Shown here: piece after piece, positions 27,637-32,450 of the stretch
How positions within the stretch are numbered: position 1 is the stretch's first letter
Layout: every line of letters starts with the position of its first letter
Assembly (NCBI RefSeq): GCF_025685625.1
Contig: NZ_JAGSYI010000004.1
Span: 620,001 to 684,000 of the forward strand
Direction: 5' to 3'
Length of the DNA: 64,000 nucleotides
DNA from: Acidicapsa acidisoli
Lineage (GTDB): Bacteria; Acidobacteriota; Terriglobia; Terriglobales; Acidobacteriaceae
The notes under the pieces: model-generated
Told to the model about the DNA's origin: nothing
What the model saw: the letters and a program-made list of their open reading frames with translations, nothing else
Databases searched by the model: none
Made by a program: the position numbers and the translations under genes

Positions 27637-28137
27637 TCAAAGATACTTTGCGAAGCTTTCGATATGGCGTGCACCATACTCCCTGCGTTCTACGGGCGAT
27701 GACAAGATTGTCGAGGTGGAAGTTGCTCCCAGTGCGGAGAGCCGGTCAATCAATACTTCCAAGTGACGGATTGACACAACGTGCGCTTCAAACACAAAGG
27801 ATTCCGATCCGGTGATGCGATGGCACCGGCTGATCTCGACAAGTTCCTGAATTGCCGTCACTGTGCGACGGATCTGCAGATCGCCACCGGGAATTGTGAG
27901 CCGCATCCAGATGTGAATCGGCACACCCAACGTCGCCAGGTTCAACGAAGCATGGTAGCCGGTGATCACCCCCGCATCCTCCAGGCGATGCACTCGTTCC
28001 GCCACCGCCGGCGTGGATAATCCAACCTTTCTGCCCAATTCGGCAAACGAAAGACGAGCGTTATTTTGCAGACATTCAATGAGCTTCCATGCAATAGCAT
28101 CCAGCTCAACTCGATTAGGAACGATCTTGTGGGTCAT
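27637..28137 (-). CDS. Lrp/AsnC-family transcriptional regulator, 166 aa
   Basis: The N-terminal winged helix-turn-helix is clear (LDAIAWKLIECLQNNARLSF, then AELGRKVGLSTPAVAERVHRLEDAGVI), followed by a RAM ligand-binding domain (about residues 75-160). The ATG at 28137 has AAGG ten bases upstream and is preferred over the GTG at 28146. It is transcribed away from the hpd cluster, sharing a promoter region with it. Lrp-type regulators commonly sense amino acids, so control of the Phe/Tyr catabolic genes by an aromatic amino acid is a reasonable inference, not shown here. Confidence 0.88.
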   Translation of the reverse strand: MTHKIVPNRVELDAIAWKLIECLQNNARLSFAELGRKVGLSTPAVAERVHRLEDAGVITGYHASLNLATLGVPIHIWMRLTIPGGDLQIRRTVTAIQELVEISRCHRITGSESFVFEAHVVSIRHLEVLIDRLSALGATSTSTILSSPVERREYGARHIESFAKYL

Positions 28138-28146
28138 ATTGAACAC

Positions 28147-28156: not shown

Positions 28157-28308
28157 AATTGATCCATTATGCCTAATATTCTTAACCTCGAGTGAATTTT
28201 TTCTTACCGATCGCCATTCCCAGCTTCATCGCACAAGCCTATTCTTTTGTCTAGCCGTGAGTGCTTAGTTTCATCGGTTTTCCAGTGCTCATGGCGAAGG
28301 AGGTTCCA

Positions 28309-29469
28309 ATGAACGCGAGCTTACGTTCCATCTCATCTGCAACCGCTGCGAATGCCGTACTGGAATCTCCTGCCTCCGGACCGGATTTCCTTCCATTGCG
28401 GGGGACGGACCATGTCGAATTCTACGTGGGCAATGCCCGCCAGGCAGCGCATTTCTACCGCAGTGCGTTTGGCATGTCCCTGGTCGCGTATGCCGGACCG
28501 GAGACCGGGCAGCGCGATCGCGCCTCCTATGTTGTTCAACAGGGCAAGATTCGTTTTGTGCTGACCACACCTTTGAAGAGCAGCGGGCCTATTGCGGAAC
28601 ACATCCAGCGGCATGGCGATGGAGTGCGCGTCATCGCGCTCTTAGTCGACGATGCATCGCGCGCCTGGCGCGAAACAACAAGTCGCGGAGCGACCAGCTT
28701 TGCCGAACCCCATGTCATTTCCGACGAACACGGGCGCGTTGTGCTATCCAGTATTTGCACGTATGGGGACACGATTCATACTTTTGTCGAGCGCGACGAC
28801 TACCAAGGCACATTCCTTCCCAGATATCGCGCGATCGAAGGCGATCCACTTGCGCACTCGACCGGTCTGCTCCACATCGATCACATGGTGGGCAACGTCG
28901 GTTGGCATGAAATGGACACGTGGGTCGATTTCTACTCGCGTGTGATGGGATTCCGTCTCTACCAGCACTTTGACGACGAAGACATCTCCACGGAGTATTC
29001 ATCGCTCATGTCAAAGGTGATGGCCAATGGCAACGGCTACGTAAAATTCCCCATCAATGAGCCTGCGGAAGGGAAACGCAAATCGCAAATCGAAGAGTAT
29101 CTCGATTTCTACGCAGGGCCTGGAGTCCAACATATCGCATTAGCGACAGGCGACATCCTGCATACGGTGAAGAGTCTGCACGCGCAAGGGATCGACTTCC
29201 TCCATGTCCCTCACACGTATTACAGCGAATTGCAGGGGCGTGTTGGCGTTATTGATGAGCCAATCGCCGAGTTAGAGGAACTCGGTATTCTCGTCGATCG
29301 AGACCACGAAGGTTACATGCTTCAGATCTTCACGCGACCTGTCGAGGATCGACCAACACTTTTTTTCGAAATCATCCAGCGCAAAGGAAGCCGCAGCTTT
29401 GGCAAAGGTAATTTCAAAGCACTATTTGAAGCCATCGAACGCGAGCAGCAGGAGCGCGGCAACCTTTAA
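28309..29469 (+). CDS. hpd: 4-hydroxyphenylpyruvate dioxygenase
   Basis: HPPD turns 4-hydroxyphenylpyruvate into homogentisate, the second step of tyrosine degradation. The ATG at 28309 follows a strong GGAGG and gives 386 aa; the frame is open upstream to 28261 without support. Two vicinal-oxygen-chelate domains are present. The iron ligands are H192 (HIDHMVGNV), H275 (GPGVQHIALAT) and E354 (LFFEIIQRKG). It is the first gene of the hpd-phhA-hmgA-unknown-fahA cluster. Confidence 0.95.
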   Translation: MNASLRSISSATAANAVLESPASGPDFLPLRGTDHVEFYVGNARQAAHFYRSAFGMSLVAYAGPETGQRDRASYVVQQGKIRFVLTTPLKSSGPIAEHIQRHGDGVRVIALLVDDASRAWRETTSRGATSFAEPHVISDEHGRVVLSSICTYGDTIHTFVERDDYQGTFLPRYRAIEGDPLAHSTGLLHIDHMVGNVGWHEMDTWVDFYSRVMGFRLYQHFDDEDISTEYSSLMSKVMANGNGYVKFPINEPAEGKRKSQIEEYLDFYAGPGVQHIALATGDILHTVKSLHAQGIDFLHVPHTYYSELQGRVGVIDEPIAELEELGILVDRDHEGYMLQIFTRPVEDRPTLFFEIIQRKGSRSFGKGNFKALFEAIEREQQERGNL

Positions 29470-29485
29470 TTCAGGGAGATCAATC

Positions 29486-30238
29486 GTGTATTCTGCAACG
29501 CTATCGACCGCGGCGCCATTCATTATCCAGCAGGATTACCCGGCTTACACCGATGAGCAGCACAGCGTGTGGGCTGAGCTTGTGGGCCGCAGGTTGCCTG
29601 AATTGGAGAAGCATGCGGCCAGTGAGTATCTTGAGGGATATGAGGTCATCGGCCTGCAACGAGATCGCCTGCCCAATCTGACATCGATCAGCGCGCGCCT
29701 CGCTCCAAGAACGGGCTGGACATCCACGCCCGTCAGCGGGTTCCTGCCAGCACCCGCTTTTTTCGAGATGCTTGCTTCGCGCCTTTTCCCGACTACAACC
29801 TGGTTGCGCAAAAGGGACGCTCTCGACTACACACCGGAGCCCGACATCTTTCACGATGTTTTCGGCCATGTGCCGATGCATGCGCACCCGGTGTTTGCCG
29901 ATTTTCTTGCGCACTACGGCCGGGTTTGCGCACACGTCGAGAGCGCTGATGTTCTCGAGAAACTTGGCCGCCTGTTTTGGTACACGGTCGAATTCGGGTT
30001 GATTCGCGAACGCGGCGAAATCAAGGTCTATGGAAGCGGCCTCATCAGTTCGCATGGGGAATGCCGCAATGTAACGGAAGGTCATTGTGCAGTTCATGAT
30101 TTCTCATTGCGTGAAGTCCTCGACACTCCGGTAAAGGTGGATGAGTTGCACAAGTTGCTGTTTGCTGTGAGTAGTTTCGACCAGATCTACGAAGCAATGC
30201 GCGAAGCCGAACGACTCGCTCTAGATGGAGAGTTATGA
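29486..30238 (+). CDS. phhA: Phenylalanine 4-monooxygenase
   Basis: PhhA hydroxylates phenylalanine to tyrosine using tetrahydropterin and non-haem iron. The GTG at 29486 (with GGGAGA upstream) gives 250 aa, typical of bacterial PhhA. The ATG 87 bases earlier lies inside hpd and is rejected. The iron-binding HDVFGH motif supplies H123 and H128, and E169 lies in [20 protein letters not shown] is also typical. The gene follows hpd by 16 bases and overlaps hmgA by four. No pterin carbinolamine dehydratase is linked. Confidence 0.93.
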
Positions 30239-31599
30239 AGACGGAATCCATTTCAGTCGATGTTCAATATCAATCGGGTTTTGGAAACGAATTCGCGACT
30301 GAGGCTGTTCCCGGAGCGCTACCGGTTGGCCAAAATGCGCCTCAACAGCACCCGCTTGGTTTGTACACTGAGCAGTTCAGTGGCACACCGTTTACTTCGC
30401 CACGCGCTACTAATCGCCGCACTTGGACCTATCGCATCCGTCCATCCGTTACACACCGCCCTTACGAAGAGATTGATTCACGGTTGATTCGGAGTGGTCC
30501 GTTTACGGAGGTTCCAACGACACCGAATCAACTTCGCTGGGACCCGCTGCCTATACCCAAAGAAAAGACGGACTTTGTCGATGGAATCGTCACGCTGGGC
30601 GGAAATGGCGATCCTGCAATGCAAGTGGGTGTAGCGATCCATCTCTACGCGTTCAATACATCCATGAAGGATCGGTTTTTTTACAGCGCGGATGGAGAGC
30701 TGCTGATCGTACCTCAGTTGGGGAGACTGCGTTTTCATACGGAACTGGGAATTCTGGATGTCGCGCCAGGCGAGATTTGCGTTATCCCGCGCGGTGTGTT
30801 GTTTCGCGTAGAGCAACACGACGACGAGTCTTCGCGCGGTTATATTTGCGAAAATTATGGATTGTCGTTTCGGCTTCCCGAACTAGGCGCGATCGGCGCC
30901 AACGGATTGGCCAATGCACGTGACTTCGAGATTCCGGTCGCAGCCTTCGAAGACCGCGAAGGCGAGTTTCGTATCACAGCAAAATTCATGGGAAGGCTGT
31001 GGTCTGCAAGCATCGATCATTCCCCGCTGAATGTTGTCGCGTGGCACGGAAACTATGCGCCTTACAAATATGACCTTGCCCGCTTCAACTGCATCAACAC
31101 AGTCTCCTTCGATCATCCCGACCCCTCGATCTATACCGTTTTGAGCGCTCCATCGGCCATCCCAGGCACGGCCAACTGCGATTTCGCGATATTTCCCCCG
31201 CGCTGGATGGTTGCTGAGCACACCTTCAGGCCGCCGTGGTTCCATCGCAATCTGATGAATGAATTCATGGGACTGGTATTCGGTGCGTATGACGGAAAGG
31301 CAGAAGGCTTTGTGGCCGGCGGCGCAAGTCTACACAATTGCATGGCGGGGCATGGTCCTGACGCGGAGACATATGCACGCGCCAGCAACGCGGAACTGAA
31401 GCCACAATACCTGGAGAATACGCTGGCCTTCATGTTTGAGACTCAGCTTGTGGTGCGGCCCACCGAGTTTGCCATGAAGACAAAGATTCTGCAGCACGAA
31501 TACTTTGAATGCTGGCAGGGGCTGAAAAAGTATTTTGCGGCAAGCAATGGCGTAAACCCACCCGCGAACCGGAAACCAGCGCACTCAACTCCAAAATGA
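30235..31599 (+). CDS. hmgA: Homogentisate 1,2-dioxygenase
   Basis: HmgA opens the homogentisate ring to maleylacetoacetate. The 454-residue protein begins with the family block [19 protein letters not shown], and keeps the cupin iron region near [19 protein letters not shown] and [12 protein letters not shown], plus [17 protein letters not shown]. Its ATG overlaps the phhA stop as ATGA, and its own stop overlaps the next ATG the same way, so the proteins are probably translationally coupled. The last 20 or so residues are poorly conserved. Confidence 0.95.
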
Positions 31600-32450
31600 G
31601 TGTCATCGCCAAATTGCTGGATGGCTTAATCGACTACGCTGGTCTTTATCCTCCAGCCAGCCTCGATTTGCCCGCGGTGGTGCGCAACTATCTTTACTAT
31701 CGACAAGGAAAAGACGCGGCTGTTCTTGGAAGACTGGTTATTGATTTGAGCCGGATGGAAGAACTGCGAAGCTTCGCGCGCGATTCGCTGCAGGAACTTC
31801 TTCTGAGTATTACTGCTTCGGCAAGCCTCGATGTAGATAGCTTGAATCGCTTAATGGATGCCGGACTGCCAATTGAAGCGATTGAGATAAAAGCCAACGC
31901 GCCCTCTGTGATTCAGTGCATTGCCGCGCAATTGCCTGTTGAAGTGGTGACCTACTTCGAGGTGCCGGTTGAAGGTACAGATGCCGGGGTACTCGATGCT
32001 ATTTGCGCGGCCAGTGCGAGGGTTAAACTACGCTTGGGTGGATTGGCAGCGGAGACGTTCCCATCATCGCTAGCAGTTGCACGTATGTTGCAGGCCATTG
32101 CAGAGCGCCATCTTCTTTTTAAAGCTACGGCTGGACTGCATCATCCACTGCCTGGACGCTATCCCTTCACAGATGCACCGGACAGTGCAGCAGGAACGAT
32201 GCACGGCTTTGTGAATCTTAACTGCGCCGCAGCTTTGCTTTATCTCGGCGGTGATGTAGCTGATGCAGTACTGATCCTCGATGAGATGGAGCGAGACGCA
32301 TGGCAGGTATCAACAGAGACCATCGCGTGGCATGACCTTCGCTGGAACTCCTTGCAAATGGAAGAGGTCCGGCAAGCTTTCTTCTGCGGCATTGGTTCGT
32401 GCTCATTCACACAGCCATTAGCGGAGATGGAGGCGTTGGGATGGAGGTGA
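31596..32450 (+). CDS. Conserved protein of unknown function in the tyrosine catabolic operon, 284 aa
   Basis: The start is the ATG at 31596, overlapping the hmgA stop (ATGA); the longer frame from 31509 lies inside hmgA. The protein looks soluble and alpha/beta, with alternating strands and helices as in a TIM barrel. Striking blocks are [11 protein letters not shown] (residues 13-23), [16 protein letters not shown] (142-157; K144, R146, GG 148-149), [10 protein letters not shown] (175-184; K176, H182, H183) and MHGFVNLN (202-209). I recall similar blocks in uncharacterised bacterial proteins but no assigned activity. It overlaps fahA by 10 bases. Placed between hmgA and fahA, it occupies the slot where maleylacetoacetate isomerase would be expected; this role is a hypothesis only. 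Confidence 0.8.

What the first reader, a model, noticed from the sequence alone, without database searches (positions are those of the whole stretch)
31596..32450. Uncharacterised protein translationally coupled between hmgA and fahA, in the slot of a missing maleylacetoacetate isomerase
Seen: the 284-codon gene overlaps hmgA (ATGA) and fahA (10 bases), so it is made with the homogentisate pathway enzymes. Known: between HmgA and FahA the pathway needs maleylacetoacetate isomerase, usually glutathione-dependent MaiA; none is encoded in the cluster. The protein has strongly motif-like blocks (K144/R146/GG, K176, H182-H183, H203) that could form an active site in a TIM-barrel-like fold. Inference: it could be a non-GST isomerase, or another dedicated function such as a regulator of flux.
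Basis: partly seen in the sequence, partly recalled or inferred. Interest (0 to 1): 0.78.

Follow-up and report, generated by a model that had tools for sequence, protein, structure and literature searches.

The report
Likely new glutathione-free maleylacetoacetate isomerase family
A widespread bacterial protein with no named family sits exactly where the missing enzyme of tyrosine breakdown should be, almost never occurs without the next enzyme of that pathway, and is probably a new, unrelated kind of that enzyme that does not need glutathione.

Summary
The gene at 31596-32450 (284 aa, here X) is real and overlaps hmgA by 4 bases and fahA by 10. X matches no Pfam or NCBIfam family and no solved-structure sequence. 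It belongs to a large unnamed family found, by record names, in nine phyla. In 107 distinct loci FahA lies directly downstream in 88 (median gap 45 nt). In the window's phylum 55 of 56 X-bearing genomes have fahA, against 13 of 241 without X; in a second phylum 36 of 36 against 54 of 211. On plasmids X stands between hmgA and fahA, the slot that maiA fills on a Yoonia plasmid, and it is part of tyrosine operons of Priestia. AlphaFold2 gives a confident barrel (pLDDT 96.6); fold matches are weak (DERA, triose-phosphate isomerase). E97, E122, K144, R146, K176, H182 and C269 are invariant in all 133 aligned rows. Best explanation: a glutathione-independent maleylacetoacetate isomerase with a fold new for this reaction. 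The main caution is that many fahA genomes have neither X nor MaiA, so the missing maiA alone proves nothing. The activity is untested.

The parts
31596..32450 (+). gene X: 284-aa predicted beta/alpha-barrel protein, candidate glutathione-independent maleylacetoacetate isomerase
30235..31599 (+). hmgA, homogentisate 1,2-dioxygenase, stop overlaps X start by 4 bases
   Evidence: PF20510/PF04209, TIGR01015 689.8 bits
32441..33730 (+). fahA, fumarylacetoacetase, start overlaps X stop by 10 bases
   Evidence: TIGR01266 507.4 bits
29399..30238 (+). phhA, phenylalanine 4-monooxygenase; true start probably downstream of the TTG at 29399
   Evidence: NF008877 303.1 bits, match starts at residue 33
28261..29469 (+). 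hppD, 4-hydroxyphenylpyruvate dioxygenase; true start probably downstream of the GTG at 28261
   Evidence: TIGR01263 443.7 bits, match starts at residue 48
27637..28146 (-). Lrp/AsnC-type regulator, divergent from the operon
   Evidence: PF13404, PF01037; an AsnC-type gene also lies upstream of two Priestia plasmid operons and directly before the Nostoc X
31884..31886 (+). codon of invariant Glu97 (predicted strand 93-99)
   Evidence: 133 of 133 rows; strand
31959..31961 (+). codon of invariant Glu122 (predicted strand 118-123)
   Evidence: 133 of 133 rows; strand
32025..32033 (+). codons of Lys144 to Arg146; Lys144 and Arg146 invariant (predicted strand 142-146)
   Evidence: 133 of 133 rows each; strand
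32121..32144 (+). K176-H183 block KATAGLHH (predicted strand 175-178 and following loop)
   Evidence: K176, T178, G180, L181, H182 133 of 133; A179 132; H183 131
32400..32402 (+). codon of invariant Cys269 (just after predicted strand 263-268, GSCS)
   Evidence: 133 of 133 rows

Best explanation
X is a maleylacetoacetate (MAA) cis-trans isomerase, unrelated to the glutathione-dependent zeta-class GST MaiA. It converts 4-maleylacetoacetate, made by HmgA, to 4-fumarylacetoacetate, the substrate of FahA. Shown here: gene position, near-obligate co-occurrence with fahA in two phyla, no MaiA over the cut-off in any X genome tested, a predicted barrel fold, and an invariant set of residues, several of them charged or Cys at barrel strands. 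Inferred: the reaction itself, and how it is done. The most likely mechanism is that the enzyme supplies its own nucleophile in place of glutathione. Either Cys269 (beta8) adds reversibly to C2 of the maleyl double bond, or a lysine (K144 on beta6 or K176 on beta7) makes a Schiff base with the C4 keto group. Either would break the double-bond character so that the C2-C3 bond can rotate. Arg146 and His182 would hold the carboxylates and Glu97/Glu122 would move protons.
For: Position: X overlaps hmgA and fahA. FahA is directly downstream on the same strand in 88 of 107 distinct loci; of the other 19, 7 hold under 1 kb downstream and 12 are true exceptions. HmgA or the short HmgA lies directly upstream in 30 of 107, 28 of these with FahA downstream. 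On plasmids FahA is directly downstream in 9 of the 9 regions opened of 23 records: hmgA-X-fahA in one of two Streptomyces opened, Pseudonocardia, Nonomuraea and two Rhodococcus; hppD-X-fahA-aminotransferase-hmgA in two Priestia. A Yoonia plasmid has hmgA-maiA-fahA, with maiA in that slot. Co-occurrence: 55 of 56 X genomes have fahA against 13 of 241 others (Fisher p 4e-46; by genus 39 of 40 against 4 of 127); second phylum 36 of 36 against 54 of 211 (p 7e-19). It holds where X is not near fahA: 8 of 56 (4 of these on another contig) and 8 of 36 (5 on another contig). MaiA over the cut-off: 0 of 56, 0 of 46 and 0 of 36 X genomes (three genomes are in both of the last two sets). Structure: pLDDT 96.6, pTM 0.93; the three Foldseek matches at E<=0.001 are DERA, a triose-phosphate isomerase variant and pyruvate carboxylase. 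Conservation: 133 of 133 rows for E97, E122, K144, R146, K176, H182, C269.
Against: No activity data. 13 fahA genomes of the phylum and 54 of 90 fahA genomes of the second phylum lack X. None of those 13 has even a weak MaiA match, and 0 of 39 tested of the 54 has one. So a genome can run FahA without X or MaiA, by a third enzyme or without one, and the missing maiA is not by itself evidence for X. Six of 56 and three of 46 X genomes have GST genes that match MaiA weakly, below the cut-off, so another GST cannot be excluded there. One Streptomyces plasmid with X-fahA also holds an MDMPI_N protein about 4 kb away. Fold similarity to known enzymes is weak (TM about 0.4-0.56), and profile comparison with DERA finds nothing. 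One X genome (G193) has no fahA match, and Planctomycetota loci L105, L129, L130 have X among unrelated genes; their genomes were not searched for fahA.
Confidence: 0.8

Rival explanations
1. X is another enzyme dedicated to the same branch but not the isomerase, for example one that repairs or disposes of a side product of maleyl- or fumarylacetoacetate (hydrate, succinyl derivative, lactone), while isomerisation is done by a third unknown enzyme or by cellular thiols.
For: Many fahA genomes have neither X nor MaiA, so something else must cope there. [quoted passage not shown]
Against: X takes the slot that maiA takes on the Yoonia plasmid between hmgA and fahA and is part of operons in which no isomerase is annotated. 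No X genome tested has MaiA over the cut-off.
Confidence: 0.13
2. X is a non-catalytic partner of FahA or HmgA (assembly, metabolon or flux regulator).
For: Tight coupling to fahA.
Against: Invariant K, R, E and C residues lie within or just after barrel strands, towards the face where barrel enzymes usually have their active site. Co-occurrence holds when X is not near fahA. fahA occurs without X in many genomes.
Confidence: 0.04
3. X is a class I aldolase or lyase (DERA-like) acting on a related keto acid rather than an isomerase.
For: Lysines on beta6 (K144, KxRxGG) and beta7 (K176, KATAGL) recall the KTSTG and KASGG lysine blocks of DERA, which sit on the same strands as I recall; the best Foldseek hit is DERA 6d33; DERA sequences read.
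Against: Profile-profile comparison with 13 DERA proteins gives probability 0.2 percent; no Pfam hit; the carbon-carbon cleavage that the branch needs is already done by FahA.
Confidence: 0.03

Closest known systems
MaiA / zeta-class glutathione transferase (TIGR01262), EC 5.2.1.2
   Same: Slot between hmgA and fahA (Yoonia plasmid); presumed reaction
   Different: GST fold and glutathione dependence; X has no GST match and a predicted barrel
Mycothiol- or DinB-type maleylpyruvate isomerase (MDMPI_N, PF11716; function recalled)
   Same: Glutathione-independent isomerisation of a related maleyl keto acid
   Different: Helical-bundle metalloprotein that uses a small thiol (recalled); X is a predicted barrel with its own invariant Cys and no MDMPI or DinB Pfam match
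2-deoxyribose-5-phosphate aldolase (DERA, TIGR00126) and other class I aldolases
   Same: Barrel, lysines on beta6 and beta7 (Foldseek E 4.4e-4, TM 0.44/0.56)
   Different: No detectable sequence relationship (hhalign 0.2 percent); X has invariant E, R, H and Cys; different gene context
Maleate isomerase (Asp/Glu racemase superfamily; recalled)
   Same: Cis-trans isomerisation with cysteine as nucleophile (recalled)
   Different: Different fold (recalled) and no Pfam match to X

Membership tests
MaiA / zeta GST (TIGR01262) | match over the curated cut-off (171 bits) | tested here: not met
   NCBIfam lists no family for X at E<=1
MaiA / zeta GST (TIGR01262) | GST fold (thioredoxin-like N domain, helical C domain) | tested here: not met
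   predicted alternating beta/alpha fold; top Foldseek hits are barrel proteins
MaiA / zeta GST (TIGR01262) | maleylacetoacetate isomerase activity | not testable with these tools
   inferred from context only
DERA / class I aldolase | beta/alpha barrel | tested here: met
   predicted model only
DERA / class I aldolase | catalytic lysines on beta6 and beta7 (recalled) | tested here: inconclusive
   K144 and K176 lie on strands 142-146 and 175-178 and are invariant; no superposition with DERA was available
DERA / class I aldolase | sequence profile similarity | tested here: not met
   hhalign probability 0.2 percent, E 0.37; no Pfam family
DinB / MDMPI maleylpyruvate isomerase | Pfam match and helical bundle | tested here: not met
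Homogentisate pathway gene | linkage to hmgA/fahA across distant bacteria | tested here: met
   88 of 107 distinct loci, 28 of 36 within about 3 kb in the second phylum, 9 of 9 plasmid regions opened of 23 records
Homogentisate pathway gene | occurs almost only in genomes with fahA | tested here: met
   55 of 56 and 36 of 36 genomes; genomes of Planctomycetota and other phyla not tested for fahA

The most novel reading that the evidence does not exclude
X is a cofactor-free maleylacetoacetate isomerase built on a barrel. It uses an enzyme-borne nucleophile (Cys269, or a Lys144/Lys176 Schiff base) where the characterised counterparts that I know of use a small thiol. It would be the gene behind the glutathione-independent isomerase activity reported in the 1970s-80s in Gram-positive bacteria such as Bacillus megaterium (recalled, not read here), and it is spread over bacteria of nine phyla (by record names) and their plasmids.
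Probability: 0.5. Interest if true: 0.82.

Novelty: new variant of a known kind. Interest (0 to 1): 0.76.

Why it matters
It would fill a pathway hole in phenylalanine/tyrosine breakdown for many soil, freshwater and Gram-positive bacteria, in which this protein is called hypothetical (plasmid records). It would also give a new fold and mechanism for a textbook cis-trans isomerisation and make the old question of the glutathione-independent isomerase testable with one purified protein. The same survey shows that a further group of fahA genomes has neither enzyme, so another solution may remain to be found.

Tried and rejected
PDB sequence searches gave no relative (best E 0.13 and 0.24). Homology to DERA was tested by profile comparison and not supported. 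Simple complementarity of X and MaiA was tested and not found: no tested genome has both X and MaiA over the cut-off, but genomes with neither are common; the one genome of 297 with MaiA over the cut-off (G198) has no X and no TIGR01266 match at E<=1e-60. A look for a shared neighbour of fahA in 20 of the 54 X-negative fahA loci of the second phylum gave serine hydroxymethyltransferase (7 of 20), MiaE (4 of 20) and a flavin-reductase-like gene (4 of 20), none a clear isomerase. Ten proteins encoded beside or near hmgA/fahA in X-negative Acidobacteriota were two AraC-type regulators, an alpha/beta hydrolase, an aldehyde dehydrogenase, two DDAH-like proteins, a GST (beside hmgA) and three without a family; no shared candidate. 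The phylum draw around a record labelled Deltaproteobacteria turned out to be the window's phylum again, so it is no independent test. Phage records hold no match. Ten paper searches for a glutathione-independent, barrel-type, missing or non-orthologous MAA isomerase showed no paper on this family in the rows listed (one search listed 20 of 51, one search listed 40 of 223 from 2015 on). I saw listings and abstract starts, and passages of PMC3572157, PMC10950700 and PMC11457941; subscription papers are mostly not held.

Full report
Observation. The ORF 31596-32450 (+) is intact, with 284 codons. Its ATG overlaps the hmgA stop (ATGA) and its end overlaps the fahA ATG at 32441 by 10 bases. The operon reads hppD-phhA-hmgA-X-fahA with a divergent AsnC-type regulator. 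No MaiA profile match at E<=0.001 exists in the held 7.1-Mb genome. The window lies in the family of Edaphobacter (Acidobacteriaceae): same-family genome G233 has a contig whose length and X position equal those of the named Edaphobacter lichenicola record.

Family. X has no Pfam or NCBIfam match at E<=1. In 80 family members no Pfam family is matched by more than one member at E<=0.1, and neither the protein nor the profile finds a solved relative (best E 0.13 and 0.24). P0001 finds matches in 56 of 297 genomes of the phylum, the window's own included. Plasmid records add Priestia (Bacillota) and Streptomyces, Pseudonocardia, Nonomuraea, Rhodococcus (Actinomycetota): 23 records, with hypothetical protein as the annotation of X wherever one is given. 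Phage records have no match.

Context. Of 110 loci 3 were duplicates. In the other 107 FahA is directly downstream on the same strand within 1.5 kb in 88, median gap 45 nt; 7 of the other 19 hold under 1 kb downstream; 12 are true exceptions, of which 4 have HmgA or FahA elsewhere in the locus. HmgA or a short divergent HmgA is directly upstream in 30 loci, 28 of these with FahA downstream. In the second phylum 23 of 36 X genes lie directly before fahA, 5 about 3 kb away and 8 not near (5 on another contig); one of the 8 (G688) lies beside HppD and the short HmgA. Of 23 plasmid records I opened 9 X regions, and FahA is directly downstream in all 9. Two Priestia plasmids carry AsnC-hppD-X-fahA-aminotransferase-hmgA-permease, with a DUF1450 gene between the first two; a Streptomyces plasmid hmgA-X-fahA-CoA transferase A/B; a Pseudonocardia plasmid hmgA-X-fahA next to a transposase gene; Nonomuraea and two Rhodococcus plasmids the same order with the short HmgA. 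A second Streptomyces plasmid has X-fahA without hmgA in view and an MDMPI_N (mycothiol maleylpyruvate isomerase domain) protein about 4 kb upstream. By contrast a Yoonia plasmid has hmgA-maiA-fahA. Plasmids hold FahA in 119 records at E<=1e-60 and MaiA-like matches in 229 at E<=1e-20; the ten commonest genera named there are Pseudomonadota, as I recall. I did not test record by record whether any plasmid holds both X and MaiA.

Co-occurrence. Among the 297 genomes fahA (E<=1e-60; 67 of 68 over the cut-off) is in 55 of 56 X genomes and in 13 of 241 others; by genus 39 of 40 against 4 of 127. The exception, G193, has X near the start of a contig in a 490-contig assembly. hmgA over the cut-off is in 32 of 56, and 54 of 56 if divergent matches count. 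In the phylum drawn around an Ignavibacteria genome (Bacteroidota in GTDB, as I recall) fahA is in 90 of 247 and X in 36 of 247, all 36 within the 90. MaiA over the cut-off is in 0 of 56 X genomes (6 have weak GST matches), in 0 of 46 genomes of the 80 loci, chosen because their titles do not name Acidobacteria or its classes (3 with weak GST matches; L096 among them proved to be of the window's phylum, and L126 was left out), and in 0 of 36 (three of them also among the 46). Against a simple reading: the 13 fahA genomes without X have no MaiA match either; the profile finds no X in the 11 of these 13 that were among the 26 genomes (the same profile rings in 23 of 149 and 36 of 247 genomes); and 0 of 39 tested of the 54 X-negative fahA genomes of the second phylum have MaiA. 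So absence of MaiA is not evidence by itself; the evidence is position and the near-obligate tie to fahA.

Structure and residues. AlphaFold2 from 80 sequences: mean pLDDT 96.6, pTM 0.93, with strands among others at 12-14, 44-50, 70-74, 93-99, 118-123, 142-146, 175-178, 263-268, which I read as the eight strands of a barrel. Foldseek similarity is weak: three matches at E<=0.001, DERA 6d33 (E 4.4e-4, TM 0.44/0.56), a triose-phosphate isomerase variant and pyruvate carboxylase; a designed protein, ADH synthase and FabK are among those that follow. In 133 aligned rows (80 of A2, 29 more from the phylum, 24 from later loci; 130 distinct, a few genes fetched twice) D13, A15, P19, P20, E97, E122, K144, R146, G148, G149, P156, K176, T178, G180, L181, H182, G204, N207, G267, C269, S270, P274 never vary; H183 is Arg in the two Rhodococcus proteins. 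E97, E122, K144, R146, K176 and C269 fall within or just after the strands that I number beta4 to beta8. Lysines on beta6 and beta7 recall class I aldolases such as DERA (sequences read), but profiles do not align, so this is an analogy, not membership. Model coordinates were not at hand, so distances between these residues were not measured.

Mechanism. MaiA adds glutathione to the double bond, lets it rotate and eliminates it (recalled; a review passage says that zeta-class GSTs isomerise MAA in the presence of glutathione, PMC10950700, passages). X has an invariant cysteine and two invariant lysines in a predicted barrel, so an enzyme-borne nucleophile is the simplest replacement. Which of the two chemistries, or a metal route through E97/E122/H182, is open.

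Literature. Ten searches of an open-access library showed no paper on this family in the rows listed (the lists were cut). From memory, glutathione-independent isomerases of maleylacetoacetate and maleylpyruvate were reported in Bacillus and other Gram-positives in the 1970s-80s; I did not read these papers here. The presence of X in tyrosine operons of Priestia (formerly Bacillus) megaterium fits.

Verdict. It is a new, unrelated protein family for a known reaction, pending assay.

Noticed in passing
L016:332-1492; L219:10531-11676; L220:5802-6977: A short divergent homogentisate dioxygenase (about 385-400 aa, far below the TIGR01015 cut-off; PF20510-positive in L016; annotated as homogentisate 1,2-dioxygenase in Priestia, Pseudonocardia and Streptomyces) replaces the standard HmgA near X or HppD in many loci.
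   Followed up: partly
L199:6722-7540, L209:9351-10271, L213:8918-9775, L214:7223-8119: A flavin-reductase-like protein (PF01613) lies next to or near fahA in 4 of 20 X-negative Bacteroidota loci; possible part of another solution.
   Followed up: partly
G036, G040, G094, G103, G139, G147, G155, G163, G195, G237, G268, G273, G289: Thirteen fahA genomes of the window's phylum have neither X nor any MaiA match; how they isomerise maleylacetoacetate is unknown.
   Followed up: partly
L148:5721-6410; L147 beside hmgA: In a genus with hmgA but without X or TIGR01266 FahA, a GST gene lies beside hmgA; the range tried in L147 held a stop, not examined further.
   Followed up: partly
L223:2277-2933: An MDMPI_N protein lies about 4 kb from X-fahA on a Streptomyces plasmid; it may or may not bear on the same step.
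   Followed up: partly
window:35663-36583 (-): IS1595-type transposase about 2 kb downstream of fahA.
   Followed up: no
L137:8895-9803, L143:8196-9068: A DDAH-like protein (PF19420) follows hppD in two X-negative Acidobacteriaceae fahA-hppD loci.
   Followed up: no
L096: A record titled Deltaproteobacteria bacterium (P_S1_bin.14) draws the window's own phylum in the genome collection, so its title disagrees with the genome taxonomy.
   Followed up: yes
L220: hmgA-X-fahA on a Pseudonocardia plasmid (source Apterostigma) has IS5- and IS1380-family transposase genes on either side, suggesting a mobile homogentisate cassette.
   Followed up: no
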